Shown one piece after another: positions 1 to 12,644 of a DNA stretch of 13,157 nt. The DNA is from Candidatus Aerophobota bacterium (lineage in GTDB: Bacteria > Aerophobota > Aerophobia > Aerophobales > B3-G15). Within the stretch, counting starts at the first letter, position 1. Each line of letters begins with the position of its first letter. The notes beneath the pieces are model-generated. The model did no database searches and had not been told where the DNA came from. It saw only the letters and a program-made list of their open reading frames with translations. The position numbers and the translations under genes are program-made. The stretch lies in contig JAUWJM010000036.1 in NCBI GenBank assembly GCA_030607715.1, positions 1 through 13,157 of the forward strand, read 5' to 3'.

Positions 1-539
1 CTAAAGTTCCCTCACCTGCTGCTCCCGGTTACCGGGGCAAGGCAGAGTTTGATGAGGTGGAATGTGTGGTTTGTGGCGCCTGCGCTGAAGTTTGTCCTTC
101 TAATGCTATTGAGATAGTAGAGGAGTCTGCACCCCACGGCAAAAGAAGGTTGATCCTTCACTATGATCAGTGTATTTTTTGTGGCCAGTGTGAGGCTAAT
201 TGCCTCACAGAAAAGGGTATAAAGCTTACCACTAAGTATGATTTAGCGGTTTTATCCAGAGATGAGGCTAAAACCAGTATAGAGGATGAGCTGATATTCT
301 GTGAATATTGCAGAGAACCTATAACGACAAGAAAACATCTTGCCTGGATTAGAGATAGGCTGGGGCCTCTTATCTTTTCCAACCCTAATTTATTTATATC
401 CTCTTTAACTGATATAGAGTTGATTAAAGAAAAACTTCCCAAATCAGAGGATGTCTCTCTGGAACGGGCCGATAATTTAAGAATTCTCTGTCCCAACTGC
501 AGAAAACAACTTACCTTGAAAGAAGAGTGGGGTAAGTAA
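1..539 (+). CDS. HyfH/MbhN-like 4Fe-4S ferredoxin subunit (5' partial)
   Basis: The frame is open from the left edge (first full codon at 3), so the gene starts outside the window; the GTG at 57 lies inside it. Upstream residues read PGYRGKAEFDE, the usual lead-in of HyfH/MbhN/EchF-type subunits. Two [4Fe-4S] motifs follow, CVVCGACAEVCP and CIFCGQCEANC. The second lacks the usual proline after its last Cys. A C-terminal extension of about 100 residues carries two more Cys pairs, CEYC (about 300-311) and CPNC (about 489-500), looking like a zinc-ribbon or extra metal site. By family, such subunits carry electrons between ferredoxin or a catalytic module and the NuoB-like subunit of membrane-bound hydrogenases or formate hydrogenlyases. 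It ends 41 bp before the CsoR-like gene and probably closes an upstream operon for another energy-converting complex. It is separate from the NuoI-like domain at 9885-11756. Confidence 0.85.
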   Translation, partial: KVPSPAAPGYRGKAEFDEVECVVCGACAEVCPSNAIEIVEESAPHGKRRLILHYDQCIFCGQCEANCLTEKGIKLTTKYDLAVLSRDEAKTSIEDELIFCEYCREPITTRKHLAWIRDRLGPLIFSNPNLFISSLTDIELIKEKLPKSEDVSLERADNLRILCPNCRKQLTLKEEWGK

Positions 540-580: not shown

Positions 581-853
581 TTGATACCAAAAGATAATAA
601 TCCAAAAGAGGACATTTTAACAAGATTACGAAAGGCCAAAGGGCAGATGGGTGGTTTGGAAAAGATGATTGAAAGGGGTAATCCTTGTTCAGATATTTTG
701 ATGCAGATTAGTGCTATCCGATCAGCAGTTGGAAAGATAGGTATGCTGATTATGCAAAATTATATGAGAGATTGTTTCATTTATCAGGATAAAGAGACTT
801 TTGAGGACAGAATAGAGGAACTGATTAAAAGTTTTTCCAAATTCATAAGGTAA
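581..853 (+). CDS. CsoR/CstR-family transcriptional repressor
   Basis: A 90-residue, all-helical DUF156 protein. Conserved family segments are RLRKAKGQMGGLEKMIE (15-31) and CSDILMQISAIRSAVGKIG (36-54), then C65 in QNYMRDC. The start is TTG at 581, placed by AGAGGG at 571-576; the GTG at 576 hits a stop after two codons. Family members are tetrameric repressors that bind GC-tract dyads and sense Cu(I), Ni/Co, formaldehyde or persulfide. In numbering that happens to match M. tuberculosis CsoR, both cysteines are present (C36, C65) but the copper-ligand His61 is Tyr61 and position 64 is Asp. Losing the His while keeping the Cys pair is more like CstR, the persulfide sensor, than a copper sensor. 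It lies between two respiratory-complex loci, 240 bp upstream of the Mrp-type operon, whose promoter holds a large dyad. Family assignment is firm; the signal it senses is inferred. Confidence 0.88.
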   Translation: MIPKDNNPKEDILTRLRKAKGQMGGLEKMIERGNPCSDILMQISAIRSAVGKIGMLIMQNYMRDCFIYQDKETFEDRIEELIKSFSKFIR

Positions 854-1093: not shown

Positions 1094-1639
1094 ATGAATG
1101 GTGAAAGAGTTCACAATCACAAGGTAAGATCTAAAAGTAAATTTAATAAAATAGGAAAATATATTTTAACCTTAATCTCCCTATTTATCTTATGGATTTT
1201 ATTAACATCAACTTTTGCCTGGGAGGAGTTAACTACAGGTTTTATCTTCTCAGCAATTATTGCAATTTTTAGTTATAGCTACTTTACCCAAAGGGGCTGG
1301 ACTGGGATTACCTTAAAGAAAATTGCTTATTTTCTTCTTTATATACCAGTTGTTCTCTGGGAGATGGTTAAGGCAAATTTTGATGTAGCCTATAGAGTAG
1401 TTCATCCCAAAATGCCAATAAGACCGGGAATAGTCCAGATCAAGACAAGCCTTAAATCTGATATTGCTAAATTAATTTTAGGAAATTCTATAACTTTAAC
1501 TCCAGGAACATTAACTGTAGAAATTGTGAAAGATAATTTGCTTATTCACTGGATTAATGTAAAAACTAAAGATGTTAACCAGGCAACAGATATTATTGGA
1601 AAAAGGTTTGAAAAATACTTAAAGGTGATTTTTGAATGA
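1094..1639 (+). CDS. mrpE: Mrp/Mnh antiporter subunit E homologue (MbhA/MbxA type)
   Basis: 181 residues, slightly longer than typical MrpE (about 160) because of a basic N-terminal extension of about 20 residues. Two or three membrane helices fall within residues 22-100. The soluble C-terminal half carries the MnhE signature: WEMVKANFDVAYRVV, then KSDIAKLILGNSITLTPGTLTVE, then LLIHWINV. MrpE is a small membrane subunit of multisubunit Na+/H+ antiporters and of the antiporter-like module in Mbh/Mbx/Mbs complexes. It is the first gene of the operon. The ATG at 1094 is preceded by AAAGAAAAGG (1071-1080), a somewhat distant Shine-Dalgarno site with no better in-frame start. It overlaps the next gene by 4 bp (ATGA). 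Confidence 0.9.
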   Translation: MNGERVHNHKVRSKSKFNKIGKYILTLISLFILWILLTSTFAWEELTTGFIFSAIIAIFSYSYFTQRGWTGITLKKIAYFLLYIPVVLWEMVKANFDVAYRVVHPKMPIRPGIVQIKTSLKSDIAKLILGNSITLTPGTLTVEIVKDNLLIHWINVKTKDVNQATDIIGKRFEKYLKVIFE

Positions 1640-1887
1640 TCTTGATAGTTTTCTTTGCAATTATTACAGTGGCAATTATTTTAGCTTTAGCTCGTGCTAT
1701 AAAAGGTCCAACAGCACCAGATAGAGTAGTTGGTGTTGATATAATGGTAACTATTACCATAGCATTGATGGTTCTTCTAAGTCTTTTTTTTAAGAGAAAG
1801 ATTTACCTTGATGTAAGTTTAATATATGCAGTGCTTTCTTTTGTTGGAGTGATAGCTGTAGCTCGTTACCTGGATAAAGGACTATGA
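1636..1887 (+). CDS. mrpF: Mrp/Mnh antiporter subunit F homologue (MbhB/MbxB type)
   Basis: 83 residues with three predicted membrane helices and the MrpF signature: RAIKGPTAPDRVVGVDIM after helix 1, and YLDVSLIYAVLSFVGVIAVARYL in helix 3. It is a little shorter than MrpF of stand-alone antiporters (about 90). The conserved Asp in GPTAPDRV is present. It is a small structural subunit of the ion-translocating module. AAAGGTGA (1621-1628) serves as its ribosome site. It overlaps both neighbours by 4 bp, indicating translational coupling. Confidence 0.93.
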   Translation: MILIVFFAIITVAIILALARAIKGPTAPDRVVGVDIMVTITIALMVLLSLFFKRKIYLDVSLIYAVLSFVGVIAVARYLDKGL

Positions 1888-2234
1888 TTTTAAAAATAAT
1901 AGGCTATGTAATAGCAGGGGTTGGGGTAGCCTTTCTTTTCTTAGGTGCCTTAGGAGTATTTAGATTTCCCGATGTATATAACAGGCTCCAGGCTGGAACA
2001 AAGTGTACCACCCTGGGGGCATTTTTATCAATTATTGGCGTGGGTATAATTGAACCGGCCTGGTTTTTAAAATGTTTAGTTGTAGCTGTATTTATCTTAT
2101 TTACAAATCCTATTAGTGCCCATGTCCTTGCCAGAGCAAGCTATAAAAGTAAAGTAAAGCTCTGGGATAAAAGTGTTGTTGATAAATGCAAAGAATTTGA
2201 AGAATGCATTAAAGTAGAAGAGGAAGATAAATGA
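1884..2234 (+). CDS. mrpG: Mrp/Mnh antiporter subunit G homologue (MbhC/MbxC type)
   Basis: 116 residues, the normal MrpG length. Three membrane helices carry the family signature: GALGVFRFPDVYNRLQAGTK after helix 1, then TTLGAF, and FTNPISAHVLARASY after helix 3. The soluble tail from about residue 90 is charged (KCKEFEECIKVEEEDK). MrpG is a small subunit of the membrane arm with no known redox role. The ATG at 1884 has AAAGGA just upstream and overlaps subunit F by 4 bp; the stop overlaps the next start by 4 bp. Confidence 0.93.
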   Translation: MILKIIGYVIAGVGVAFLFLGALGVFRFPDVYNRLQAGTKCTTLGAFLSIIGVGIIEPAWFLKCLVVAVFILFTNPISAHVLARASYKSKVKLWDKSVVDKCKEFEECIKVEEEDK

Positions 2235-2467
2235 TTTTTCAACTAATACTCATCTTTGTTATGATTATTTTAGCAGTTACAGCAGTTTTGTTTAAAGATT
2301 TAATAAATGCTGTGATTGCCTGTGCCGCAGTGAGCTTAATTACCTCTATCTTGTTTTATTTTCTTCAGGCACCAGATGTTGCTATGGCTGAGGCTGCTAT
2401 TGGCGCAGGATTAATTACAGCGATATTTGTCATTGCTATAAGAAAAACGGAAAGATACGAAAAATGA
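2231..2467 (+). CDS. DUF4040 subunit, MbhD/MbxD type (MrpA C-terminal fragment homologue)
   Basis: 78 residues, about three membrane helices. It matches the DUF4040 segment found near the C-terminus of MrpA and as free-standing MbhD in hydrogenase-type complexes: FKDLINAVIACAAVSLITSILFYFLQAPDVAMAEAAIGAGL, with the conserved APDVAMAEAAIG stretch. The acidic residues of that stretch are thought to belong to the ion pathway; this is family knowledge, not shown here. Its occurrence as a separate short gene, rather than inside MrpA, is a hallmark of the Mbh/Mbx/Mbs architecture. Four-base overlaps on both sides. Confidence 0.9.
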   Translation: MIFQLILIFVMIILAVTAVLFKDLINAVIACAAVSLITSILFYFLQAPDVAMAEAAIGAGLITAIFVIAIRKTERYEK

Positions 2468-3156
2468 GAAAAATAATTGCTATCATCATACTGGGGATAA
2501 TTGCTATAGGGCTTATTTTAACTTTTTTGCAAATCCCTTTTGGCAAAGATAAAATAAATGTAGCTAATTATTATATTAAAGAGGGAATCCAACAAACCGG
2601 TGCTGTTAATATTGTTACCTCAGTTGTTTTAAACTATAGAGGATTTGATACCCTGGGTGAGATTGCAGTCTTATTTATCGCTGCTATTGGCCTTGGTGCA
2701 GTTTTATTTGCAGAAAGAAAGACGCGAAAAAAAACGGGTAGCAAAGGACAACAAGCAAGTTTAATCCTGCGCACAGGATCACGCTTGCTTTTTCCCTTAA
2801 TCCTTCTTCTTGGCACTTATGTTTTTGTCCATGGTCATCTTACTCCTGGAGGAGGATTCCAGGGAGGAGCAATTATTGCTTCAGGATTTTTGTTAATGTT
2901 TTTAGCCTTTCCAAAACAAAGTATAAACAAAAAATCATTAAGTGTGGTTGAGAGCTTAAGTGGATTAGTTTTTGTAGGGATTGGACTTCTTGGTCTTGTT
3001 TTTTCCGGGTATTTCCTGACAAATTTTTTGCCCAAGGGGATTCCCAATACTCTTTTTAGTGCTGGTATTATTCCGGTTATATACATTGCTGTTGGACTTA
3101 AGGTTGGATTTGATCTAACCGGTATTATTGATGACTTGCTGGGGAGAAACGAATGA
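2464..3156 (+). CDS. mrpB: Fused MbhE + MrpB-like (MbhF) membrane subunit
   Basis: 230 residues in two parts. Residues 1 to about 80 resemble MbhE/the extreme C-terminus of MrpA: one N-terminal helix, then a stretch ending NIVTSVVLNYRGFDTLGEIAVLFIAAIGL. Residues about 95-230 are an MnhB/MrpB domain with about four helices and the signature LTPGGGFQGGAIIA (about residues 126-139). The linker is basic (AERKTRKKTGSKGQ). In Pyrococcus Mbh, as I recall, these are two genes (mbhE, mbhF). The continuous frame with no internal Shine-Dalgarno/ATG pair at the junction indicates a genuine fusion. Overlaps its neighbours by 4 bp on each side. Confidence 0.88.
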   Translation: MRKIIAIIILGIIAIGLILTFLQIPFGKDKINVANYYIKEGIQQTGAVNIVTSVVLNYRGFDTLGEIAVLFIAAIGLGAVLFAERKTRKKTGSKGQQASLILRTGSRLLFPLILLLGTYVFVHGHLTPGGGFQGGAIIASGFLLMFLAFPKQSINKKSLSVVESLSGLVFVGIGLLGLVFSGYFLTNFLPKGIPNTLFSAGIIPVIYIAVGLKVGFDLTGIIDDLLGRNE

Positions 3157-3512
3157 ACCTCATTTATAATTGGATGTACTATATTGCCTCAGGGGGTTTA
3201 ATTTTAATTGGCCTTTATACTGTTCTGGTAAAGACAAATTTAATTAAAATAATTATTGGAATTAATTTTATTGAGACCGGAGTAAATATTTTGCTCATCT
3301 GTATTGGTTATATTAAAGGAAGGACTGCCCCTATATTTTCTAAACCAGGGGTAAATCCTACAAATGTGGTAGATCCTGTTCCTCAAGCTTTAGTATTAAC
3401 TGCTATTGTTATTGGAGTAGCTGTGTTAGCTTTGGCACTTTCTATTGTTATTAAAGTTTATCAGCATAACAAAACCTTAAATGTTACTAAGCTAAAGGGG
3501 TTAAAATGGTAA
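3153..3512 (+). CDS. mrpC: MrpC/NuoK-like membrane subunit (MbhG/MbxG type)
   Basis: 119 residues with three membrane helices, typical for MrpC/NuoK. The NuoK-like signature is visible: GLYTVLVKTNLIKIIIGINFIETGVNILL (helices 1-2, with the conserved Glu of helix 2 in NFIETG) and DPVPQALVLTAIVIGVAVLALAL (helix 3). In complex I, NuoK carries buried glutamates of the proton path; here the FIETG Glu is the equivalent. A strong GGGGAG (3141-3146) precedes the ATG. It overlaps the upstream gene by 4 bp and the MrpD-like gene by 7 bp. Confidence 0.93.
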   Translation: MNLIYNWMYYIASGGLILIGLYTVLVKTNLIKIIIGINFIETGVNILLICIGYIKGRTAPIFSKPGVNPTNVVDPVPQALVLTAIVIGVAVLALALSIVIKVYQHNKTLNVTKLKGLKW

Positions 3513-4981
3513 CCCCATCACTTTTAATTGCTATACCTTTAGCTTTTGCCTTTTCCATTCCTCTTTTTGGCCTTATCTCTAAAAAAATTGAAAAATATAT
3601 ACCTGTTCTGGCTTTATTGATTAATGTTGTTATTAGTTTTATTTTAATTCCTCAGGTTTTAAAAAAGCCAATTGTTGTATCTATTGGAGGTTGGAGTCCA
3701 CCTTTTTGTATTAACTTAGTGGTAGGACCTTTAGGGATTTTCTTTACAGCTCTTATCTCCAGTATTGGTCTTCTGGTTTCTATATATGCAGTTAGTTATA
3801 TAAAGAAAGAACCTACCCAGAAATACCACATTTTATTTTTGCTATTAATAATTGGTGCCATAGGTATAGTCTTAACCGGGGATATATTTAACCTTTTTGT
3901 TTTTTTTGAGATTCTTTGCATCTCATCATATGCTCTTGTTGCTTATAACAAGGATAAAGATGGAACAGAGGCGGCCATAAAATATTTAATTCAGGGTTCA
4001 ATTGGATCCAGCTTTGTCTTGATTGGTATCGCCCTTTTATATGGTCTTTTTGGAACACTTAATATGGCAGATATTGCCAGCAAGATTACATCAGCTGAGC
4101 CTACTTATTTATTCGTTAGCTTAGCTTTTCTTATTACCGGGTTTGGAATTGAGGCAGCTATATTTCCTTTAAATGCCTGGTTGCCTGATGCTCACTCATC
4201 AGCACCATCATCAATAAGTGCTGTTCTTTCCGGTATAGCTATTAAAACTGGAGTTTATGGCCTAGCAAGGATGATTTTCACCATATTTAATGCGCAGGGT
4301 ATATTAGTTTTCATCGCCTTCCTTGGTTTATTAACTCTTTTAATTGGTGAGATGTCTGCATTTAGACAGGATGACATTAAAAGACTTTTAGCTTACTCCA
4401 GTATTGGTCAAATTGGGTTAATTATCTTTGCTTTAGGAATAGCAACCTCTCTTGGAGTTTTCGCATCTCTTTTTCAAATAGTATCTCATGCCTTAGCTAA
4501 GACTCTTCTTTTCTTAACTGTAGGATATATGATTTACAAAGTTGGTTCTAAAAGTATTACCTCATTAAACGGGATAGGCAAAAAAATGCCTTTAATCTCC
4601 TTTGCCTTTACTATAGGCTCTTTTTCCTTAATTGGTCTTCCACCTTTTGCAGGATTTATTAGCAAATTCTCAATAGTTTATGCTGCTATTAAGGTAGGAA
4701 AACCAATTTTCTTAATCTTTATCGCTGTTGCTTTAATTGCAACTGTTATTGAAGCTGGCTATTTTTTTAAAATTGTGCAAAACCTTTATTTTAAAGAAGG
4801 AAAAGGTATGGAGAAAATAACTGAAAGATCGGGATATATAATCATCCCTATAATTATTTTAACTATATCAATCATTGTAATTGGAATCCATCCTCAATTT
4901 ATCACCGGTTTACTTAAACAAGCAGCTAACGAGCTTTTGGGAAGGACAGGATATATAGGATGGGTTCTGGGAGGCACATAA
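3506..4981 (+). CDS. mrpD: MrpD/NuoM-like antiporter subunit (MbhH/MbxH type)
   Basis: 491 residues, the standard length for MrpD/MbhH (14 helices, Proton_antipo_M family). Ion-path residues visible are Glu135 in FVFFEILCISSYAL (helix 5), Lys247 in SGIAIKTGVYGLAR (helix 8) and Lys332 in SHALAKTLLFL (helix 10). The family motif FPLNAWLPDAHSSAPSSISAVLSG is intact. At the helix-7 position where NuoL/M/N usually have Lys (GxxxKAAxxPLxxWLPDAH) this protein has Glu216 (GFGIEAAIFPL). I believe this occurs in some MrpD-like lineages but cannot verify it. It is one of two large antiporter-like subunits and is expected to form one H+/Na+ channel. AAAGGGG at 3494-3500 is its ribosome site. Confidence 0.93.
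   Translation: MVTPSLLIAIPLAFAFSIPLFGLISKKIEKYIPVLALLINVVISFILIPQVLKKPIVVSIGGWSPPFCINLVVGPLGIFFTALISSIGLLVSIYAVSYIKKEPTQKYHILFLLLIIGAIGIVLTGDIFNLFVFFEILCISSYALVAYNKDKDGTEAAIKYLIQGSIGSSFVLIGIALLYGLFGTLNMADIASKITSAEPTYLFVSLAFLITGFGIEAAIFPLNAWLPDAHSSAPSSISAVLSGIAIKTGVYGLARMIFTIFNAQGILVFIAFLGLLTLLIGEMSAFRQDDIKRLLAYSSIGQIGLIIFALGIATSLGVFASLFQIVSHALAKTLLFLTVGYMIYKVGSKSITSLNGIGKKMPLISFAFTIGSFSLIGLPPFAGFISKFSIVYAAIKVGKPIFLIFIAVALIATVIEAGYFFKIVQNLYFKEGKGMEKITERSGYIIIPIIILTISIIVIGIHPQFITGLLKQAANELLGRTGYIGWVLGGT
4969..4974 (+). promoter_or_regulatory. Shine-Dalgarno site fixing the GTG start at 4982
   Basis: GGGAGG lies 7 bp before the GTG that directly follows the TAA of the MrpD-like gene. It supports a true GTG start with abutting stop and start rather than a later ATG. 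Confidence 0.7.
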
Positions 4982-6841
4982 GTGCAACTTATAACTATAT
5001 TAGTAGTTTCTTTTCTTGGAGCAGGAATAGTTTATTTTGTCGGTAAGATTTCTAAAAGAGCTCGTGATATCTTAGCAGTTTTAGTATCTTTAGCCACAGT
5101 TGGGTTAATTATTTTAACTTATAATCAAAAAATCTACACCAGTTTTTATCCTCTCCCTTTTCTAAATTTATCTCTTAGCTTAAGAATAAATTCTCTTTCC
5201 TGGTTTTTTGCTATAGTAGTTGCCGTAATTGGATTTTTATCAATTCTTTTTTCCTTGGAGTATATAAAGTATCATAAGAGATTAAGTTTTTATTATTTTA
5301 TGATGTTATTTGTTAATGCAAGTATGCTGGGAATTGTCCTTAGTGGTGATTTTCTATCTTTTTATATTTTCTGGGAGATAATGAGCTGGGGTACTTTTCT
5401 TTTGATAAGCTACAAGGGAGGAAAGGCAGTAGCTGCTGGATTAAAATATATTATTATGTCAGTTGCAGGCTCCGTAGCTATGCTATTTGCCATTGTTAGT
5501 CTGTATGCATCTTATGGAACACTAAAAATTTCCAGTTTGGCTTCCTTTCTGCAAACTGCCTCACCTGGATACATTCTCTTTCTTTTGATTATGTTTGTAA
5601 TCGGGTTTGGTATCAAGAATGCAATTTGGCCACTTCACACCTGGCTTCCTGATGCTCATGCTGAAGCAGTATCTCCTTTTTCAGCAGTTCTTTCCGGAAT
5701 CCTGGTAAGAATGGGAATGTATGGATTTGTTTTAGTTATGTATGGTATGGTAGGATTAAATCTTCTACAAAGGTTAGGATATGGGCTGTTAAATTTTAAC
5801 TATATACTTTGCTGGATTGGAGCTATTACCATAGTTATTCCTACATTTACTGCCCTTCTTCAAAATGATTCTAAAAGACTTCTTGCCTGGCATGGAATTG
5901 GGCAGGGAGGATATATGATTTTAGGAATTGGAACTGCTACATCATTGGGTATTGCTGGAGGTATATTTCACACTTTAAATCATTGTATCTATATAGCATT
6001 GCTTTTCTTTGTTGCCGGAGCAATAGAACATAGAACCGGAGGAGTAAGAGATCTAAGAGAACTTGGGGGATTAATTAAAAGAATGCCGATTACTTTTATA
6101 GCAGGCTTGGCTGGCATATCTGGCTTAATTGGTATTCCTCTAACCAATGGCTTTATTTCCAAGTGGCTGATATACAAGACTTTAATTTTAGAAAATTATC
6201 CATTTTTAGCCTTTGCTGCTCTTATAGGAACCTGGGGAACAATTTTATCAGTTTACAAATTCTTGCATAACATATTTTTAGGACAGCTTCCAGAAAAATA
6301 CAAAAAGGTTAAGGAAGTTCCCTGGACAATGCAGATTCCCATGCTTCTTTTAACCCTGGCCATTATTTTATTTGGAATTTTGCCTGGAATCCCCTTAAAG
6401 GTAATTTCTGCAATTGAGAAATCCTTGGGAATAAAACCTCTTTCTACTTCTTATTTTGGCATACCCAAAGAGATTGGAGAGTTAAATACGATTAATATTC
6501 TTGCCGCAGTATTAGTGGCTGGCGGGGTTATTTATCTTGCATTCTCCCTCTCAGCAAAATCAAGACGGGTCAACCAGGATGACAGCTATGCCGCCGGCGC
6601 ATCTATTCCCAAGGATAAATACCAGTATAGTGTAAGATTTTATGATCAAGCCTACAGAATAATCGGACCTTATCTTCGTGATGTGGTAGATGATTTTTAT
6701 TACTGGCTGGCGGAAAGGAGCAAATCTTTCTTCCAGATTGTAAGGCAAATTTATACCGGAAATATAAATACTTATGCTTTGTATATTCTTCTTTTTTTAG
6801 CCTTTTTAATTTTTGTTAAGTTAGGATGGAGACTATGGTAA
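4982..6841 (+). CDS. Second antiporter-like subunit, NuoL/HyfB-like (MbxH' type)
   Basis: 619 residues, GTG start. Residues about 1-480 form the 14-helix Proton_antipo_M core: Glu132 in FYIFWEIMSWGTF (helix 5), Lys212 in GFGIKNAIWPLHTWLPDAHAEAVSP (helix 7), and DSKRLLAWHGIGQGGYM. The tail adds a helix (about 500-525), a soluble stretch (SAKSRRVNQDD through FYDQAYRIIGPYLRDVVDDFYYW) and a last helix (about 598-617), an arrangement seen in HyfB/EhrA-like subunits. The helix-10 Lys normal in HAxxKALLF is replaced by Ile338 (NHCIYIALLFF), and helix 8 has Arg in GILVRMGMYG. Helix-10 transport may therefore be altered. Its place after the MrpD-like gene and before the NuoH homologue is the Mbx/Mbs order (H, H', M). 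Confidence 0.9.
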   Translation: MQLITILVVSFLGAGIVYFVGKISKRARDILAVLVSLATVGLIILTYNQKIYTSFYPLPFLNLSLSLRINSLSWFFAIVVAVIGFLSILFSLEYIKYHKRLSFYYFMMLFVNASMLGIVLSGDFLSFYIFWEIMSWGTFLLISYKGGKAVAAGLKYIIMSVAGSVAMLFAIVSLYASYGTLKISSLASFLQTASPGYILFLLIMFVIGFGIKNAIWPLHTWLPDAHAEAVSPFSAVLSGILVRMGMYGFVLVMYGMVGLNLLQRLGYGLLNFNYILCWIGAITIVIPTFTALLQNDSKRLLAWHGIGQGGYMILGIGTATSLGIAGGIFHTLNHCIYIALLFFVAGAIEHRTGGVRDLRELGGLIKRMPITFIAGLAGISGLIGIPLTNGFISKWLIYKTLILENYPFLAFAALIGTWGTILSVYKFLHNIFLGQLPEKYKKVKEVPWTMQIPMLLLTLAIILFGILPGIPLKVISAIEKSLGIKPLSTSYFGIPKEIGELNTINILAAVLVAGGVIYLAFSLSAKSRRVNQDDSYAAGASIPKDKYQYSVRFYDQAYRIIGPYLRDVVDDFYYWLAERSKSFFQIVRQIYTGNINTYALYILLFLAFLIFVKLGWRLW

Positions 6842-7716
6842 TAAAAGCTGTATGGATAATTGTTATGCCTTTGATAGCCCTTGTTATTGGGGGGTTTTTC
6901 CTGGGCTTATCAAGAAAAGTAATTGCCAGAATCCAAAGAAGGTACGGTCCACCAATTTATCAACCAATTATTGATATTATTAAGCTAATTAATCAGGAAA
7001 GCATCTCTCATGGTAGAATATTTGATGTAGGTGTTATTTTATCTTTAGCCGGTTCAATAGTTTTAGTTCTTTTCATTCCCTTTGGTGGAATTGCTCCTCT
7101 TGCTACATCAGGTGATTTTCTTGTTGTCATTTATCTTATGCTTCTTGCACCGCTTGGGGTTGCTTTAAGTGGAGGAGAAGCAGCTAATCCAAATGTAAGT
7201 ATAGGTATATCTCGTAAGATGATGCTTGCTCTTGGATATGAGGTTCCCTTTCTTTTTGCTGTTCTGGCAGTTATGACCTTTTATAAAACCACCTCATTGG
7301 TTGAAGTGGTAAAAGCTCAACAAAGCTCTCTTTGGGGCCTAATTTATCTTCCTCTTCCTGCCATAGCTTATTTTATGATTCTACCGGCAATGCTGGAAAT
7401 AAGCCCTTTTGATATAGTCAGTGCACCTCAGGAGATTGCTTCAGGAACAGCAGTTGAGTATGGAGGAAAATACTTAGCCTTAACAACTATCCAGCATTCA
7501 TTGCATACATTTATTGTTATTGCACTTTTTGTTAATCTCTTTTTGGGTGGAGGAAACCCCCTTACCTTCTTTGTTAAAATGCTAATTGTATTTTTACTTG
7601 GTCTTTTTATCAATGCAGTTTTTCCGCGTTTAAGAATTGACCAGGCAATAAAGTACTGCTGGAAGTGGCCAGCTATACTGGCACTGGCAGGACTAATTAT
7701 AGCAAGAATAATTTAA
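6826..7716 (+). CDS. nuoH: NuoH/MbhM-like membrane anchor subunit
   Basis: 296 residues, about eight helices, the normal size for hydrogenase-type NuoH homologues (NuoH itself is about 325). Signatures: SRKVIARIQRRYGPPIYQPIIDIIKL (first cytosolic loop contacting the Fe-S arm), SGGEAANPNVSIGISRKMMLALGYEVP, and SPFDIVSAPQEIASGTAVEYGGKYLAL. It links the membrane ion channels to the peripheral NuoB/D module and carries the glutamates thought to couple redox to ion movement. Two starts are possible: ATG 6826, overlapping the previous gene by 16 bp, or ATG 6835 (MVIKAVW), which has GGAG at 6828-6831 but a short spacer. I lean to 6835. The NuoB-like gene follows after 9 bp. Confidence 0.93.
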   Translation: METMVIKAVWIIVMPLIALVIGGFFLGLSRKVIARIQRRYGPPIYQPIIDIIKLINQESISHGRIFDVGVILSLAGSIVLVLFIPFGGIAPLATSGDFLVVIYLMLLAPLGVALSGGEAANPNVSIGISRKMMLALGYEVPFLFAVLAVMTFYKTTSLVEVVKAQQSSLWGLIYLPLPAIAYFMILPAMLEISPFDIVSAPQEIASGTAVEYGGKYLALTTIQHSLHTFIVIALFVNLFLGGGNPLTFFVKMLIVFLLGLFINAVFPRLRIDQAIKYCWKWPAILALAGLIIARII

Positions 7717-7725
7717 GGAAAGAAT

Positions 7726-8286
7726 ATGGATAGAAATCAGATAAAAAAGTGGTTAAAAGTTCCAGACAAGATGGGTCAGAAATATTCGTTATGGGTAGTT
7801 TATTTTTGTACTGGATGCGGGATTATAGAGATTCCACCGGTTATAACCTCCAGATGGGATGCAGAAAGGTTTGGAATTATCCCCGTGGCTACTCCCAGAC
7901 AGGCTAATTTATTTTTAATTACAGGATATGTTTCAGTAAAAACTCTAAGAGCAATTATAAGAACTTATGAGCAGATGTCTGACCCAAAATATACTGTTGG
8001 TTTTGGTTCCTGCCCTATAAATGGTGGGATGTACTGGGACTCTTATAACACCATAAAACATCTGGATAAGTATATTCCTGTAGATGGTTGGATTGCTGGG
8101 TGTATGCCCAGGCCTGAAGCTGTATTCATTGCCATTACCCATCTTTGGACTATGATTGATAAAGGAATGGCAACTGGATATATAAAGTATAGAGAAAAAT
8201 ACAAATCCTATCGCAAAAATCAGGAAAAAGCATTGGGCAAACTGGAGTGGCCACCTTTATATCCATTAGGAGATAAAGATGAATGA
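7726..8286 (+). CDS. nuoB: NuoB-like 4Fe-4S subunit (MbhJ/MbxJ type)
   Basis: 186 residues. All four N2-type cluster ligands are present: Cys28 and Cys31 (YFCTGCGIIEIPP), Cys96 (GFGSCPINGGMY) and Cys126 (IAGCMPRPEAV). The first pair is spaced CxxC as in hydrogenase small subunits and Mbx/Mbs, not the tandem CC of complex I NuoB. The segment TPRQANLFLITGYVS (56-70) is the usual NuoB core. It holds the last cluster before the active site; in Mbs this cluster is reported to sit at the site of sulfane sulfur reduction. Residues from about 160 are a charged tail. AAGGAAAG just upstream of the ATG is a good ribosome site; it overlaps the next gene by 8 bp. Confidence 0.95.
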   Translation: MDRNQIKKWLKVPDKMGQKYSLWVVYFCTGCGIIEIPPVITSRWDAERFGIIPVATPRQANLFLITGYVSVKTLRAIIRTYEQMSDPKYTVGFGSCPINGGMYWDSYNTIKHLDKYIPVDGWIAGCMPRPEAVFIAITHLWTMIDKGMATGYIKYREKYKSYRKNQEKALGKLEWPPLYPLGDKDE

Positions 8287-8794
8287 ATCATTAAAAGAAG
8301 AGCTGGAATCAGGTTTTAAAAATGTGCTGGTAAATATTCTTGAAGATACAAGATTGGTTGTAACTGCTCCAAAAGATGAGGTTCTATCTATTTTGAGTTT
8401 TCTTAAAAATAAGGGATATAACCATTTAGCTCTTATCTCCTGTGTGGACTGGATTGAAAAAAAAGAATTTGAGCTGGTTTATGTTATCACTTCCTATTTA
8501 CAAAAGAATGATGAATATACAGGCAATGAGAGATTACATATATTTTTAAAGACAAGAATTTCCAGGAAAAACCCGGAATTTAAAACACTAATTCCCATTT
8601 TTAAGAATGCCGAACCTTACGAGCGGGAACTTCACGAGCTTTTTGGCATAAATTTTGAAGGTAATAAAAGACTAATCCCTCTTTTTTTAGAAAGGGATTA
8701 CAAGATACCTCCTTTTAGAAAGGATTTTGACACAAGAGAGTATGTTAAAGAGACCTTTGATAAAATTCCTTCTATTGAGGAACAAAAAGAATGA
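8279..8794 (+). CDS. nuoC: NuoC-like 30-kDa subunit (MbhK/MbxK type)
   Basis: 171 residues. The hallmark of the 30-kDa subunit is intact near the C-terminus: NAEPYERELHELFGINFEGNKRLIPLFLERDYKIPPFRKDF (about 117-157). The N-terminal half is a ferredoxin-like fold segment with DWIEKKEFELVYVITSY. It has no cofactor and helps to assemble the NuoB/NuoD interface. AGGAG at 8268-8272 precedes the ATG. The stop overlaps the NuoD-like start by 4 bp (ATGA). The subunit is separate from NuoD, unlike the fused NuoCD of some bacteria. Confidence 0.94.
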   Translation: MNESLKEELESGFKNVLVNILEDTRLVVTAPKDEVLSILSFLKNKGYNHLALISCVDWIEKKEFELVYVITSYLQKNDEYTGNERLHIFLKTRISRKNPEFKTLIPIFKNAEPYERELHELFGINFEGNKRLIPLFLERDYKIPPFRKDFDTREYVKETFDKIPSIEEQKE

Positions 8795-9888
8795 GAGAGC
8801 TTGAACTTTATTTTGGTCCCCAGCATCTGGGGATGGTGGGAAATCTTAGTATCACCCTGAAGGTGGAGGGTGACAGGATTTTAAAAGCCCAGGTCAATCC
8901 AGGGTATCTCCATAGAGGTTTTGAAAAATTGATGGAATACCGAACCTGGATACAGAATTTTCCTCTTGTTTGTAGAGTAAATGTAATAGAGCCGGATTCT
9001 ATGGAGATGGTGTATGCAATGGCAGTTGAAAAATTAGCAAAAATAGAAGTTCCAGAAAGAGCGAATTATATAAGGACTATTGTTCTGGAACTTGCTCGAT
9101 TAGGTTCCCATTTGTTTGGTTGCTGGGCTTATGCTAATATGCTTGGTTTTGATACAGTTGCTCAGTGGGCAATGTATCACAGAGATCTTGTTTTAGACCT
9201 TTTTGAAGAGATTACAGGTGCCAGAGTGTATCATATATATATCTGTCCTGGGGGGGTGAGACGTGATCTACCTGAGGGATTCAAAGAGAAGGTTTTAAAT
9301 ACATTGCATACCATAGGAGGCTGTATACCTGACTATGATGCCACATTTTTTAATAATCGTTTGTTTTATGAAAGGGCAAAAGGAATAGGAAAAATAACCA
9401 AAGAAGAAGCAAAAGAACTGGGAGCAACAGGTCAAATTTTAAGAGCAACAGGAGTAAAATTTGATATTAGAAAAGTTGAACCTTACGCTGCCTACAACAA
9501 AGTGGATTTTGAGATTCCTACAAGGGAAAATGGGGACGCATATTCCAGAGTCTGGATAATAAGGGATGAGATGATTCAAAGTGTTCATACTGTAATGCAA
9601 TGCTTGGAGAAAATACCAGAGGGTAAGGTCTATAACAAAGTTCCCAATCCATTCAAATGGAAGATACCAAAAGGAGAAGCTTATGTTAGGGTTGAATCTT
9701 CTCGTGGAGAATTGGGTCTTTATATGGTAAGCAATGGCGGGGATAAACCTTATCGGGTTCACTTTAGAACTCCTTCTTATCCGCATGGGCTGCTTGTTTT
9801 AGAAAAATTGTTGGAGAATGCAAGTATTGCTGATGTAGGCAATATTATGATAAGTTTATATGTAATTGCTCCGGAGATAGATAGATGA
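8791..9888 (+). CDS. nuoD: NuoD-like catalytic subunit without NiFe site (MbxL/MbsL type)
   Basis: 365 residues. Family motifs: YFGPQHLGMVGNL (7-19), NPGYLHRGFEKLMEYRTW (36-53) and the C-terminal EIDR (362-365). In group 4 [NiFe]-hydrogenases this subunit binds Ni-Fe through two CxxC pairs. Here the four positions are Asn64 and Glu67 (CRVNVIEPD, against RICGIC) and Ile359 and Glu362 (SLYVIAPEIDR, against DPCxxC), so no NiFe centre can form and hydrogen is not the product. The alignment at both ends resembles Mbx/Mbs and complex I. The substrate is unknown: sulfur or polysulfide, a quinone-like compound, or a purely structural role are possible. GPQH includes the His that in complex I lies near quinone. 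It overlaps both neighbours by 4 bp. Confidence 0.93.
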   Translation: MRELELYFGPQHLGMVGNLSITLKVEGDRILKAQVNPGYLHRGFEKLMEYRTWIQNFPLVCRVNVIEPDSMEMVYAMAVEKLAKIEVPERANYIRTIVLELARLGSHLFGCWAYANMLGFDTVAQWAMYHRDLVLDLFEEITGARVYHIYICPGGVRRDLPEGFKEKVLNTLHTIGGCIPDYDATFFNNRLFYERAKGIGKITKEEAKELGATGQILRATGVKFDIRKVEPYAAYNKVDFEIPTRENGDAYSRVWIIRDEMIQSVHTVMQCLEKIPEGKVYNKVPNPFKWKIPKGEAYVRVESSRGELGLYMVSNGGDKPYRVHFRTPSYPHGLLVLEKLLENASIADVGNIMISLYVIAPEIDR

Positions 9889-11756
9889 AAGAAAAATCAA
9901 AAATCAATGAAAAACATAGCCTTTTAAGTCCCTTTAAGGCAGTTAAGTATCTTTTTAAGAAGCCAGTAACTTTGAGATATCCTTTTGAATCCAAAGAGCC
10001 TTCACTAAGATACAGGGGTTTTCATCTCAATGACTGGGATAAATGCACTGGCTGTGGTAACTGCAAGGACATATGTCCAAATGAAGCAATTACTATGGTA
10101 GAAATTCCTGAAATAAAAGCCGAACCTGGAGAGAAAAATGAGCGCCCTCAGATTGATTATGGAAGATGTTGTTTTTGTGGTTTATGTGTGGATATATGCC
10201 CTCCTGGTTCTCTAAGACTTTCCAGGGATTATTTCCATATTCACTTTAAAACAAATACTTTTAACTTACTGGCAAAGGATGAAAAGACAGATAAAGAACA
10301 TTTTTTACCTGCAGATAAGTATTCTATATTTAAAGCAAGCCTGGAACACCGCAAGAAAGATAATGAGGGATTTGTATCCGACTTAGAATATTCATTATTT
10401 GAGCCAGAACGTGTGCCTATGCCCCAGGTTAAACCCGAGAAAAGAAAACTTTCCTTCATAGAGCAGGTTTTAGGTTACAGTAAGGAGGAGGCAAAGAAAG
10501 AGGCATCAAGGTGTCTTGAATGTAAACTATGTGAGGAGGCATGCCCAGCGCATTTAAAGATTTCCGATTACATAAGAGCCATTTATGAGGATAAGCCTGA
10601 GGAGTCTTTAAAAAAGATATTTGAGGATAATCCTATCCCTGCAATATGTGGAAGAATATGTATGAAACACTGTGAGGAAGCTTGCTCTTTAAGCATAAGA
10701 GGGGAAGCAGTATCTGTGAGATGGTTGAAGAGGTATGTCGCTGATAGTATTGAAGATTACAAGAAAACCTTGGAGCTTAAACCGGCTAAAGCTACCGGTA
10801 AGAAAGTTGCTGTTATAGGAGCAGGTCCAGGTGGTTTATCGGTAGCATATTTTTTAAGGCTTAAAGGTCACAATGCAGTTGTATTTGATTCTTTACCTGG
10901 TGGAGGAGGTATGATGCGCATAGGACCTCCACTTTACAGATTACCCATAGAAGCTATTGATAAGGATGTAAACTACATTGCTTCTTTAGGAGTTGAGTTT
11001 AGGTTCAATACTACTATAGGTAAAGACATTTTATTTGAGGATATTATGAAAGACTATGATGCAGTTTATTTAGGAATAGGAACCATTGTAAGTCGTTCAA
11101 CCAGAATTAAAAATTCTGAAAAATGCCTCTTAGCCCTTAATTTTTTAGAAGAGAACAAAATTGGAAAAGGTGTAAAAGTAGGTAAGCAAATTATTGTAAT
11201 AGGTGGTGGAAATGTAGCTATAGATGTAGCCAGAGAGGCATTAAGGGTTCAGCATATGCAATATCCTGGACAAAAAGTGATAACCAAAACTGTTTCTCTG
11301 GAAGATTGGGATGAGATGCCTGCAACAGAAGAGGAAATTGAAGATGCAAAAGCAGAAGGGATGCAGTTTAATCCTGCTTGGGGTCCAAAAGAAGTCAAGC
11401 TGGATGAGAAAGGTAAAGTTAAAGGACTTCTGTGTATGAAGGTAAAGTCAGTGTTCGATGAGAAGGGCAGGTTTCATCCTACTTTCTATGAAGAAAAAAA
11501 GACACTCTTAAAGGGGGATATGATAATTGAAGCAATAGGGCAAGCACCTGATTTCTCATTTATACCTGAGAAGCTCTTTAAGAGGCTTGAGTTTACTGAA
11601 AGAAAAAAAGTAAAAGTTGATGAAAATGGACAGACTTCCATACCTAAGGTTTTTGCTGGTGGTGATATTGTCAATTTAGATTTAGATGCAGTAACAGCTA
11701 TTGCCGATGCTAAAAAAGCTGCTGAGGGGATAGATCTTTATGTAAAGGGAAATTAA
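9885..11756 (+). CDS. Fusion of NuoI/MbhN-like ferredoxin with NfnL/GltD-like flavoprotein
   Basis: 623 residues, last gene of the operon. Domains: (1) about 40-115, NuoI/MbhN-like 2x[4Fe-4S], Cys54/57/60/64 and Cys95/98/101/105; (2) a linker of about 85 residues; (3) about 195-290, the Fer4_20 domain of GltD/NfnL/DPD proteins with Cys210/213/216/220 and Cys255/259/263/267 (CGRICMKHCEEAC); (4) FAD-binding Rossmann motif VIGAGPGGLSVAYFL (Gly312/314/317); (5) nucleotide-binding Rossmann VIGGGNVAIDVAREALR (440-442), and (6) the closing FAD motif AGGD (591-594). Predicted cofactors are four [4Fe-4S] clusters and FAD, with NAD(P) as substrate. The usual YRRS arginine pair of NADPH-binding relatives is absent (KTVSLEDWDEMPA, 468-480), so NAD versus NADP is open. 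It replaces the separate N subunit of Mbx and gives the complex its own pyridine-nucleotide module. Closest simple alternative: a misannotated GltD; the NuoI domain and context exclude that. Confidence 0.93.
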   Translation: MKEKSKINEKHSLLSPFKAVKYLFKKPVTLRYPFESKEPSLRYRGFHLNDWDKCTGCGNCKDICPNEAITMVEIPEIKAEPGEKNERPQIDYGRCCFCGLCVDICPPGSLRLSRDYFHIHFKTNTFNLLAKDEKTDKEHFLPADKYSIFKASLEHRKKDNEGFVSDLEYSLFEPERVPMPQVKPEKRKLSFIEQVLGYSKEEAKKEASRCLECKLCEEACPAHLKISDYIRAIYEDKPEESLKKIFEDNPIPAICGRICMKHCEEACSLSIRGEAVSVRWLKRYVADSIEDYKKTLELKPAKATGKKVAVIGAGPGGLSVAYFLRLKGHNAVVFDSLPGGGGMMRIGPPLYRLPIEAIDKDVNYIASLGVEFRFNTTIGKDILFEDIMKDYDAVYLGIGTIVSRSTRIKNSEKCLLALNFLEENKIGKGVKVGKQIIVIGGGNVAIDVAREALRVQHMQYPGQKVITKTVSLEDWDEMPATEEEIEDAKAEGMQFNPAWGPKEVKLDEKGKVKGLLCMKVKSVFDEKGRFHPTFYEEKKTLLKGDMIIEAIGQAPDFSFIPEKLFKRLEFTERKKVKVDENGQTSIPKVFAGGDIVNLDLDAVTAIADAKKAAEGIDLYVKGN

Positions 11757-11816: not shown

Positions 11817-12284
11817 CTAACTTTTCTCTTGAGGAGATATCCTTATCTCTGGTTTTAGGATTACCTTAGATTTTAGAGAATTAGATATAAAACAATTTCT
11901 TTCAGAAAGCTCTAACAAGCTCTGTGCTCTTTCTACATCATCATTGGAAACTACTAAGATCTCAGGTTTAACCTCTATCGTAGAAAACATAAATTCGTTT
12001 TCCACCCTTTCAAGAACTCCTCTGGCAGAGCTTTCATAACTTAACAATTCAAATTTCTTTTTTTCAGCATAATATAAAAATGTAGTCATCACGCAGATAT
12101 CAACTGAGGCAACCAATAAAGTCTCCGGTGTCCAAAGCCCGGGACGACCTTTAAACTCAGGTGGAGTGGATATTTCTATAGGAAGTTTGTCCTCAGAGGT
12201 AAGCAATCCCTTCCTACCTCCTGTCCATTTTATCCTTGTCTCATAGACAAATTGTTTACTTTTTACTTTAACCCTGGCACTCAC
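11817..12284 (-). CDS. OsmC/Ohr-family thiol peroxidase-like protein
   Basis: 155 residues, GTG start at 12284 with AGGAG at 12291-12295 (6-nt spacer). The family core is GRPGLWTPETLLVASVDICVMTTFLYYA (46-73) with the first redox Cys64, and the second redox Cys131 in SERNCFISNSLKSKVIL. OsmC/Ohr proteins are cytoplasmic dimers that reduce organic or fatty-acid hydroperoxides; some YhfA-like members have unclear substrates. Both cysteines are present, so peroxidase chemistry is plausible, but the subfamily cannot be set from sequence alone. It is convergent with the large operon, whose stop is 60 bp away. No convincing terminator hairpin was seen between them (11757-11816). Confidence 0.9.
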   Translation of the reverse strand: MSARVKVKSKQFVYETRIKWTGGRKGLLTSEDKLPIEISTPPEFKGRPGLWTPETLLVASVDICVMTTFLYYAEKKKFELLSYESSARGVLERVENEFMFSTIEVKPEILVVSNDDVERAQSLLELSERNCFISNSLKSKVILKPEIRISPQEKS

Positions 12285-12316: not shown

Positions 12317-12345
12317 ATTATCCCATTTATAAAAATCCTTATAAT
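12317..12345 (-). promoter_or_regulatory. Possible promoter of the OsmC-family gene
   Basis: On the minus strand an extended -10, TGGGATAAT, has GATAAT at 12322-12317. A weak -35 (ATTATA) is at 12345-12340 with 17-bp spacing. A start about 26 nt before the GTG at 12284 would fit. The -35 is poor, so this is tentative. Confidence 0.3.
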
Positions 12346-12349
12346 CATC

Positions 12350-12466
12350 CTGGGAGACTGGTGAAAAACCCCAATATTGTAGCGGTCCGATTCATCGGAC
12401 CCGTTAACAAAGCGGGTTTCATAAATGAAACCTCTACAAAAAACCACTTTTTCACCACTCTCCTAG
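12350..12466. repeat. Nested palindromic element with inverted pair of GTAG-footed hairpins (BIME/MITE-like)
   Basis: The outer arms are CTGGGAGACTGGTGAAAAA (12350-12368) and its inverted copy (12448-12466), 17 of 19 positions matching. An inner inverted repeat follows: TTGTAGCGG (12377-12385) against CCTCTACAA (12431-12439), one mismatch. Within lie two 8-bp hairpins with 2-nt loops: GGTCCGAT-TC-ATCGGACC (12384-12401) and GGTTTCAT-AA-ATGAAACC (12415-12432). Read in opposite orientations these are two diverged copies of one unit: GTAG, one base, an 8-bp palindrome, then CCG. The stems differ at three positions, each change compensated on the other side. A GTAG foot plus hairpin in inverted pairs is the layout of REP/BIME elements mobilised by RAYT transposases; the long outer arms also suggest a MITE. 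No clear target-site duplication was seen. Confidence 0.75.
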
Positions 12467-12617: not shown

Positions 12618-12644
12618 ATTGTGTCACCCTTTTATCTTTCATAT

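What the first reader, a model, noticed from the sequence alone, without database searches (positions are those of the whole stretch)
1094..11756. Complete Mbx/Mbs-type complex with its own NAD(P)H/flavin module
Seen: gene order E-F-G-DUF4040-(MbhE/MrpB)-C-D-H'-NuoH-NuoB-NuoC-NuoD, then a NuoI-NfnL/GltD fusion, all overlapping or abutting within 9 bp. Known: this is the Mbx/Mbs order, and Pyrococcus Mbs reduces sulfane sulfur without NiFe. Inference: the terminal fusion makes the complex a direct NAD(P)H- or ferredoxin-linked ion pump. It could run NAD(P)H to a sulfur-type acceptor, or ferredoxin to NAD(P)+. I recall that some Thermotoga-type loci have a GltD-like gene next to Mbx genes, so a relationship is likely rather than total novelty.
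Basis: partly seen in the sequence, partly recalled or inferred. Interest (0 to 1): 0.72.

Follow-up and report, generated by a model that had tools for sequence, protein, structure and literature searches.

The report
Sulfur-type ion pump with NADH module
This is a complete bacterial relative of the archaeal sulfur-reducing ion pump (MBS), with an NAD(H)-handling flavoprotein fused to its electron-input subunit; the same 13-gene layout is found in Thermotogota and several other phyla, and the genes suggest a quinone-free counterpart of complex I that links NADH, and perhaps ferredoxin, to sulfur.

Summary
Confirmed: window 1094-11756 is an intact 13-gene Mbx/Mbs operon ending in a NuoI-GltD fusion. 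NuoD and NuoB are closest to P. furiosus MBS; NuoD falls in an Mbs+Mbx clade (48 rows, 100/99), outside complex I and [NiFe] enzymes. In 62 NuoB the three MBS proximal-cluster ligands are invariant, while the cysteine MBS does not use varies.

Not unique: it is the Thermotoga MBX architecture. In two phyla (159 genomes) Mbx-NuoB and the fusion co-occur in 81, are both absent in 76 and disagree in 2, both at contig ends.

New here: the GltD part is StnC-type (Lys replaces Nfn's Glu; non-bifurcating in StnC) and has an acidic, NADH-type residue instead of NADPH-type YRR. A Rex gene (NADH sensor) lies beside the operon in 10 of 65 loci; the window has a CstR-like gene instead. The window's clade lost both residual NiFe cysteines.

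Best reading: an ion-pumping NADH (and/or ferredoxin):sulfane-sulfur oxidoreductase; direction unproven. Rnf-like ferredoxin:NAD+ exchange stays open. No biochemistry was possible.

The parts
1094..1639 (+). MbxA: MnhE/MrpE-like subunit
   Evidence: PF01899, E 8.8e-42
1636..1887 (+). MbxB: MrpF-like subunit
   Evidence: PF04066, E 2.4e-19
1884..2234 (+). MbxC: MnhG/MrpG-like subunit
   Evidence: PF03334, E 1.8e-25
2231..2467 (+). MbxD: DUF4040/MbhD-type subunit
   Evidence: PF13244, E 1.3e-20
2464..3156 (+). MbxE(F): MbhE + MnhB fused subunit
   Evidence: PF20501 and PF04039
3153..3512 (+). MbxG: MnhC/NuoK-like subunit
   Evidence: PF00420, E 1.1e-26
3506..4981 (+). MbxH: MnhD/NuoN-like antiporter subunit
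   Evidence: PF00361, E 3.8e-66
4982..6841 (+). MbxH': second antiporter-like subunit; antiporter domain ends at residue 416 of 619
   Evidence: PF00361, E 5.1e-60
6826..7716 (+). MbxM: NuoH-like membrane anchor
   Evidence: PF00146, E 4e-64
7726..8286 (+). MbxJ: NuoB-like proximal-cluster subunit with CTGCG, GSCPING and AGCMPRP motifs
   Evidence: best PDB hit MbsJ 6u8y_J, E 4.3e-66; motifs
8279..8794 (+). MbxK: NuoC-like subunit
   Evidence: PF00329, E 4e-30
8791..9888 (+). MbxL: NuoD-like subunit; no NiFe cysteines; Nqo4 H38/Y87 equivalents are V16/V65
   Evidence: best PDB hit MbsL 6u8y_L, E 6.9e-106; tree; residues
9885..11756 (+). MbxN fusion: MbsN/NuoI domain (8 Cys, two [4Fe-4S] motifs) + GltD/StnC-type FAD and NAD(H) domain (about residues 184-622, 8 Cys)
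   Evidence: (NF010590 714 bits, cut-off 946)
581..853 (+). CsoR-family regulator, CstR-like (two Cys kept, copper-site His replaced by Tyr): candidate sulfane-sulfur sensor for the operon
   Evidence: PF02583, E 1e-23; alignment to 4m1p; homologue in the same place in L003
916..968 (+). candidate promoter (TTGACA, 16 nt, TAATAT) with palindrome 941-963; weak on its own
   Evidence: palindrome not beyond chance in the window (224 of 500 shuffles) and equalled by another site at 1016; 9 of 500 in L003

Best explanation
A membrane-bound, quinone-free ion pump of the Mbs/Mbx family. The antiporter-like arm (A-H') and the NuoH-like anchor carry a peripheral arm (J, K, L, N). In MBS, ferredoxin feeds three [4Fe-4S] clusters and sulfane sulfur is reduced at a three-cysteine-ligated proximal cluster in a hydrophobic chamber tied to the ion-pumping arm. 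Here the electron-input subunit N is fused to a GltD/StnC-type flavoprotein. I propose that NADH (NADPH in a sister clade) is oxidised at its FAD, that electrons pass through the two GltD clusters and the two MbsN-type clusters to the proximal cluster, and there reduce polysulfide or a persulfide, pumping ions; ferredoxin may enter the same wire. In effect it is a complex I analogue with an unrelated NADH module and sulfur instead of quinone. Shown: genes, family, motifs, co-inheritance. Inferred: substrates, direction, coupling and cofactor preference.
For: Family: best PDB hits are MBS for NuoD and NuoB, and MbsN is the best hit of the NuoI part; Mbs+Mbx clade. Active site: the equivalents of MbsJ C28, C93 and C123 are Cys in 62 of 62 NuoB; the C25 equivalent, which MBS does not need (PMC7684303), is C in 44, G in 16, A in 2. 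Quinone-head residues are absent in the window (alignment). NADH module: 16 cysteines in 66 of 70 aligned proteins, the other 4 lacking the NuoI part; K282 and R352 in 70 of 70, equivalent to StnC K170 and R239 (alignment), and StnC is a non-bifurcating NADPH input (PMC10482914); E473 after strand 466-471 in 57 of 70 instead of YRR. In the complex: fusion and Mbx NuoB co-occur. Context: Rex gene within 2 kb in 10 of 65 loci; Rex-like sites of 13 of 14 bases upstream of mbxA in L057, L058, L059 (0-1 of 500 shuffles); CstR-like gene before the operon here and in L003. Relatives: T. maritima mbxA rises 4.36-fold with S0; a bacterial MBS is induced by S0 in strain 3DAC.
Against: No activity of a fusion-bearing Mbx is reported in the passages I read. 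In-cell potentials given in PMC10482914 are about -280 mV for NADH and -370 mV for NADPH; against sulfur couples near -270 mV (recalled) an NADH-type motif leaves almost no driving force for pumping, so ferredoxin may be the real donor. Rex and Wood-Ljungdahl-type neighbours (FolD, FdhD, formate dehydrogenase alpha and NuoF near L003; formate-THF ligase beside L025) fit ferredoxin:NAD+ exchange as well. The Lys is also in the 4 aligned relatives that have no Mbx genes nearby, so it marks the GltD type, not Mbx. The NuoI half of the model is poor (pLDDT below 50 in much of it), so a continuous wire is not shown. No background rate was computed for Rex adjacency. A CstR-related Thermus regulator did not respond to NaHS.
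Confidence: 0.5

Rival explanations
1. An Rnf-like ion pump that exchanges electrons between ferredoxin and NAD+: either conserving energy from ferredoxin oxidation, or using the ion gradient to make reduced ferredoxin from NADH. The sulfane site would be unused or regulatory.
For: Rex beside the operon; fusion of a ferredoxin-type NuoI domain with an NAD(H) domain; formate and folate enzymes near L003 and L025; larger energy drop from ferredoxin to NAD+ than from NADH to sulfur; one paper states that P. furiosus Mbx is a ferredoxin:NADP+ oxidoreductase (PMC6349859, passage).
Against: In MBS and complex I coupling runs through the chamber at the proximal cluster; a ferredoxin-to-NAD+ path would begin and end on subunit N and bypass it. 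The three-Cys proximal cluster is conserved in 62 of 62. S0 induces mbxA in T. maritima, which has Rnf as well.
Confidence: 0.27
2. Same enzyme, working backwards: sulfide or persulfide is oxidised at the proximal cluster and NAD+ is reduced at the expense of the ion gradient (reverse electron transport), at least in sulfur-oxidising Pseudomonadota.
For: The same operon in Parasulfuritortus (L026; a sulfur oxidiser by recall) and other Pseudomonadota (6 of 299 genomes; L126-L129); a Mrp-Mbx complex of unknown direction is a network neighbour of the rTCA cycle in the Riftia symbiont (PMC11636981, passages).
Against: No direct evidence for oxidation. The window's nearest relatives are candidate-phylum bacteria of unknown lifestyle. 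The potentials are nearly level, so either direction is possible.
Confidence: 0.1
3. Ferredoxin-only sulfane reductase as in P. furiosus; the GltD half is a structural, regulatory or decayed appendage.
For: MBS itself uses ferredoxin, and its MbsN is a stand-alone chain of 208 residues.
Against: FAD and nucleotide motifs, 8 GltD cysteines, K282 and R352 are conserved; the family splits on one branch (100/99) into Glu-type and YRR-type proteins, which suggests that the site is used.
Confidence: 0.08
4. A quinone-reducing complex I variant.
For: Homologous core; NCBIfam names NuoD/NuoB as complex I subunits.
Against: Tree, no tandem Cys motif in NuoB, H38 and Y87 of Nqo4 replaced by V16 and V65. 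Note that 18 of 20 Thermotogota Mbx keep a His at the H38 position.
Confidence: 0.03

Closest known systems
Thermotoga-type MBX operon (PRK13984/NF010590 fusion as 13th gene)
   Same: Same 13-gene order and NuoI-GltD fusion in 20 of 20 fetched loci of that phylum (L068 gave no hits for three small subunits); Glu-type nucleotide motif in 18 of the 20
   Different: 42-48% identity in the fusion and 47-52% in NuoD; the window clade lacks both residual NiFe cysteines that the 20 keep; fusion scores 714 bits against a curated cut-off of 946
Pyrococcus furiosus MBS (6u8y)
   Same: Subunit set; closest solved relative of NuoD, NuoB and the NuoI part; three-Cys proximal-cluster motif
   Different: MbsN is a stand-alone 208-residue chain; MBS keeps C85 and C385 in MbsL, the window has N64 and I359
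StnC of Sporomusa StnABC / NfnA of NfnABC (GltD-type NADPH module)
   Same: GltD module used as a plug-in nucleotide dehydrogenase; Lys where NfnB has Glu
   Different: StnC is fused to a NuoG-like protein, uses NADPH and has YRR; here fused to NuoI with an acidic residue
NfnL/NfnB of bifurcating Nfn
   Same: Best fold match of the model (5jca_L)
   Different: Glu at the cluster replaced by Lys; no NfnS-like gene among the ORFs scanned in the window
Respiratory complex I
   Same: Overall plan and core subunits
   Different: No NuoEFG among the ORFs scanned; different proximal-cluster motif; separate clade

Membership tests
MBS/MBX | Subunits and order A-B-C-D-E-G-H-H'-M-J-K-L-N | tested here: met
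MBS/MBX | NuoD/MbsL falls with MBS, outside complex I and [NiFe] enzymes | tested here: met
   48-row Mbs+Mbx clade 100/99; 4 complex I rows 99/95 (MbsL is a long branch and only one archaeal MBS was included)
MBS/MBX | Proximal cluster with C28, C93, C123 type ligands and CTGCG loop | tested here: met
MBS/MBX | Two residual NiFe cysteines in MbsL (C85, C385) | tested here: not met
   N64 and I359 in window; both lost in 25 of 47 NuoD, both kept in 22. In MBS they are dispensable for catalysis
MBS/MBX | Absence of quinone-head residues (Nqo4 H38, Y87) | tested here: met
   V16 and V65 by the ungapped alignment
MBS/MBX | Ferredoxin-dependent sulfane sulfur reduction with ion pumping | not testable with these tools
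   needs biochemistry
Thermotoga-type bacterial MBX | NuoI-GltD fusion as 13th gene | tested here: met
Thermotoga-type bacterial MBX | NF010590 curated score cut-off (946 bits) | tested here: not met
   714 bits; 43 of 61 genomes of the Thermotogota sample pass it
Respiratory complex I | Tandem cysteines in NuoB and NuoEFG genes | tested here: not met
   CTGCG in window; no NuoEFG among the 19 ORFs scanned
Group 4 [NiFe] hydrogenase (Mbh) | NiFe-ligating cysteines | tested here: not met
   compare ERICGIC in L087, L102, L103, L105
Bifurcating NfnL | Glu at the FAD-proximal cluster and an NfnS partner | tested here: not met
   K282; no NfnS-like gene among the ORFs scanned
StnC-type GltD module | Lys at StnC K170 and Arg at R239 | tested here: met
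   K282 and R352, residue numbers counted by me along the alignment; 70 of 70; paper passages
CstR (persulfide-sensing CsoR family) | Two Cys, no copper-site His | tested here: met
   alignment to 4m1p; meaning of the motif is recalled
CstR (persulfide-sensing CsoR family) | Response to persulfide and binding to the mbx promoter | not testable with these tools
   candidate site is weak

The most novel reading that the evidence does not exclude
Across several bacterial phyla there is a quinone-free counterpart of complex I: an ion pump that couples NADH (NADPH in one clade) to sulfane sulfur, built by fusing a StnC-type flavoprotein to the N subunit of an MBS core, controlled in different lineages by an NADH sensor (Rex) or a sulfane-sulfur sensor (CstR-like), and reversible enough to serve sulfur reducers and sulfur oxidisers alike.
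Probability: 0.3. Interest if true: 0.82.

Novelty: new variant of a known kind. Interest (0 to 1): 0.55.

Why it matters
MBS is described as a ferredoxin-fed early relative of complex I. If bacterial MBX is its NAD(H)-linked form, complex I was not the only time that this ion pump gained an NADH module, and the module (GltD/StnC type) is unrelated to NuoEFG. It would give a testable energy-conserving link between NADH, ferredoxin and sulfur in Thermotogota, where a sulfur role for Mbx is so far inferred from homology and transcripts, and in many uncultured bacteria. The NiFe-cysteine series (two in MBS and Thermotogota; one or two in most of the Cloacimonadota/Pseudomonadota types seen; none in the window clade) fits stepwise loss of the hydrogenase site.

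Tried and rejected
Own-genome search: no genome is held for the window, so no genome-wide context of the host. Viral contigs: no match to the fusion patterns. Literature for TM1217: 6 papers listed, 1 of them on Thermotogales. Palindrome upstream of mbxA: first taken as a CstR operator; in the window 224 of 500 shuffles reach its score and another palindrome at 1016 scores the same, in L003 9 of 500 shuffles reach it; the best ungapped 45-mer match between the two upstream regions is 31 of 45, without a control. Kept as suggestive only. Rex operator in the window: best match 10 of 14, within background; not claimed. Rex sites of 12 of 14 occur in L055, which has rex, but also in L008 and L071, where no Rex gene was seen nearby, so only the 13-of-14 sites are used. 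Bifurcation at the GltD FAD: disfavoured because K282 replaces the Glu. A vestigial GltD half: disfavoured. Complex I and Mbh placements: not supported. My notebook says Nqo4 H38 is absent in all; that is wrong (18 of 20 Thermotogota have His) and is corrected here. Rows left out: NuoB rows under 85% or 70% of the window's length, among them L056, whose NuoB is in two frames; NuoD tree without L010 (N-terminally cut); loci L038-L052 as duplicates; fusion tree without L009 (cut) and L031, L032, L033, L036 (no Mbx genes in the fetched flanks), which count in the 70-row tally; Rex count without L024 (contig begins inside the fusion; weak Rex-like hit with a stop). L070 and L071 have a further GltD-like hit behind the fusion. 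The phylum samples include the centre genomes, which were reached through the fusion itself.
Full report
What is there. The window (13,157 bases; the database entry for its fusion protein, P0121, names a contig of just this length) carries 13 tightly packed genes on the + strand from 1094 to 11756. Pfam gives MnhE, MrpF, MnhG, MbhD, MbhE+MnhB, MnhC/NuoK, two antiporter-like subunits, NuoH, NuoB, NuoC, NuoD and a 623-residue fusion of a NuoI-like part with a GltD-like FAD/NAD(P) part. The nearest named relatives are Candidatus Aerophobetes MAGs (NuoD 92% identical to L003).

Which family. NuoD and NuoB have P. furiosus MBS as best solved relative, and the N-terminal part of the fusion matches MbsN (residues 4-117, chain E 3.3e-33) better than any complex I NuoI chain (best 4.1e-15). 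In a 59-row NuoD tree the 48 Mbs and Mbx rows form one clade (100/99) apart from four complex I rows (99/95) and the [NiFe] rows (the program warns of long branches among the hydrogenase rows). Inside it the window's clade (24 rows, 100/99; records labelled Aerophobetes, Cloacimonadota, Eisenbacteria, Fermentibacteraceae, Latescibacteria, Bacteroidetes and others) is separate from MbsL plus Thermotogota, Pseudomonadota and one Omnitrophota row (94/83; MbsL is a long branch, so this split is less sure).

Active site. In MBS the proximal cluster has three cysteine ligands (C28, C93, C123), C25 is not a ligand and the C25A enzyme is active, and the residual NiFe cysteines C85/C385 are dispensable (PMC7684303, passages). 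In 62 bacterial NuoB the three ligand positions are Cys in all 62, while the C25 position is Cys in 44, Gly in 16 and Ala in 2 (first seen). So the cysteine that varies is just the one that MBS does not use. Of 47 NuoD, 22 (20 Thermotogota-phylum loci, L026, L037) keep both residual NiFe cysteines and 25, including the window, lack both and have a Cys three residues before the first. With 20 more loci added (67 rows) the first position is Cys in 40, Asn in 26, missing in 1, and the second is Cys in 28 and Tyr in 13; the Tyr rows come from Cloacimonadota and Pseudomonadota samples. The quinone-head residues H38 and Y87 of Nqo4 correspond to V16 and V65 in the window (ungapped alignment); 18 of 20 Thermotogota loci have His at the first of these.

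The fusion belongs to the complex. No other N subunit is in the operon. In the sample of the phylum of L004 (record: Thermotogae) the same 46 of 61 genomes have the fusion (E <= 1e-150) and the Mbx NuoB (E <= 1e-20), and the same 15 have neither. In the sample of the phylum of L006 (record: Cloacimonadota) 35 of 98 have both, 61 neither (NuoB at E <= 1e-32); G422 has only the fusion and G458 only NuoB, and by their coordinates both stop at a contig end. Order: 20 of 20 fetched Thermotogota loci have the fusion behind NuoD as last of the 13 genes, and so have the 20 loci as far as the contigs reach. In the first scan NuoD directly precedes the fusion in 29 of 37 loci. The one clear exception is an Omnitrophota genome whose Mbx core ends with NuoD, while its fusion lies on another contig beside a formate-THF ligase gene. 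Prevalence elsewhere: 6 of 299 in the Pseudomonadota sample, one of them partial, 3 of 17 in the phylum of L003; each sample includes the centre genome that was found through the fusion.

It is not new as an architecture. NCBIfam NF010590 (PRK13984, 'putative oxidoreductase', 611 positions) is this fusion; T. maritima is the only one of 14 control genomes with a match at E <= 1e-150, and it is over the cut-off. The T. maritima mbx operon was noted in 2008 as a horizontally acquired twelve-gene operon (PMC2246101, passage), and a 2022 paper calls MBX a 13-subunit homologue of MBS whose mbxA transcript rises 4.36-fold with S0 (PMC9431562, passages); 'glutamate' and 'GltD' do not occur in its main text. 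Among the papers listed by my searches, of which I read passages of some, I saw none that describes the fused NAD(H) module of bacterial MBX. That is a statement about these searches of an open-licence library only; subscription papers, such as the original MBS biochemistry (PMC6204914, not held), were out of reach.

What the GltD half does. The model's best fold match is NfnL (5jca_L, E 2.5e-43; mean pLDDT 74, mostly above 80 from residue 200 on, below 50 in much of the NuoI part). StnC, another GltD module, passes electrons from NADPH onward and has lost bifurcation; it has K170 where NfnB has a glutamate, and R239 near the FAD (PMC10482914, abstract and passages). Counting along the alignment, StnC K170 equals window K282 and R239 equals R352; both are present in 70 of 70 aligned proteins, including 4 relatives without Mbx genes nearby. 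So this is probably a linear, non-bifurcating module. For the nucleotide, the Nfn and StnC proteins aligned have YRR after the second beta strand; the window has SLE, with E473 two residues after strand 466-471, where an acidic residue usually means NADH (recalled). Among 70 aligned proteins 57 have the Glu, 12 have YRR, 1 has Gln. In a 65-row tree the 12 YRR rows (10 from the Cloacimonadota sample plus L070, L071) and the 52 Glu rows sit on opposite sides of one branch (100/99).

Regulators. A gene for Rex, the NADH/NAD+ sensor, lies within 2 kb of the operon in 10 of 65 fusion loci (4 Thermotogota, 2 Eisenbacteria, 2 Aerophobetes, 1 Planctomycetota, 1 unnamed); six were checked and confirmed by NCBIfam. 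Three Thermotogota (L057, L058, L059) have a Rex-like site of 13 of 14 bases (consensus recalled) between divergent rex and mbxA; 0, 1 and 0 of 500 shuffles reach it, and no other of 46 upstream regions does. The window has no such site. Instead it has a CsoR-family gene at 581-853 that keeps the two cysteines but has Tyr for the copper-site His, as in persulfide-sensing CstR (recalled); L003 has a homologue in the same place. A CstR-related Thermus regulator controls sulfur oxidation genes and binds TACTATACCTTGGTATGGTA, though it did not respond to NaHS (PMC10318464, passages); L003 has TATACCCTACAGTGTATGGTATA and the window TATACTTTACAGGGTAGGGTATA behind a TTGACA promoter, but the window's palindrome is no better than chance. 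In cultured strain 3DAC a bacterial MBS is induced and MBH repressed by S0 (PMC10356935, passages); the row Mbh-like tail, CstR-like gene, mbx in the window would suit such a switch. This is a hypothesis.

Mechanism. Established here: family, intact genes, sulfane-type proximal-cluster motif, StnC-type module in one chain with N. Inferred: NADH to FAD to four [4Fe-4S] clusters to the proximal cluster to sulfane sulfur, coupled to ion flow. The coupling logic of the superfamily argues against a plain ferredoxin:NAD+ path on subunit N alone; energetics (NADH about -280 mV in the cell; sulfur couples near -270 mV, recalled) argue for ferredoxin as a donor. A joint NADH/ferredoxin input is possible. 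Direction could differ between sulfur reducers and sulfur-oxidising Pseudomonadota (PMC11636981 lists MBX among complexes of unknown function or direction).

Noticed in passing
window 57-539 (+): Ferredoxin-like ORF of the HycF/NuoI kind (NF009053 E 2.4e-23, below its cut-off); a 38% homologue lies at the end of an Mbh-like operon in L103 whose large subunit has the NiFe motif ERICGIC. The contig probably begins inside a hydrogenase operon that directly precedes the CstR-like gene and mbx.
   Followed up: partly
window 11817-12284 (-): OsmC/Ohr-like gene convergent with the operon.
   Followed up: no
window 12345-13083 (-): Small ORFs, one (12645-12863) matching part of the ARMT1-like domain; may be a broken or frameshifted gene.
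   Followed up: no
L035 / L107 (Aerophobetes AUK192): CsoR gene in two frames, followed at once by the C-terminal part of NuoD and an intact fusion: a deletion of about 8.5 kb relative to the window, or an assembly join.
   Followed up: partly
L101 and L025 (Omnitrophota, G088): Mbx core without N, and an unlinked NuoI-GltD fusion beside a formate-THF ligase gene.
   Followed up: partly
L003 12462-17907 and L106 776-2724: Formate transporter, NuoF-like and formate dehydrogenase alpha genes downstream, FdhD and a partial FolD upstream of the Aerophobetes mbx locus.
   Followed up: partly
L001 (record named Thermoplasmata archaeon): Locus 81-85% identical to the window in NuoB, NuoD and fusion on a 4 kb contig of an archaeal MAG; mis-binning or recent transfer.
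   Followed up: no
L007 / L104, L006, L105: In L007/L104 a second complex with the NiFe motif (L087 ERICGICS) lies about 5 kb behind the Mbx operon; L006 shows the start of the same; L105, from the genome of L005, holds an Mbh-like operon on another contig.
   Followed up: partly
L023 11897-18062: HdrA2-like gene (NF040770, 931 bits, below its cut-off of 1100) and further Hdr-like genes (named by me) directly downstream of the fusion.
   Followed up: no
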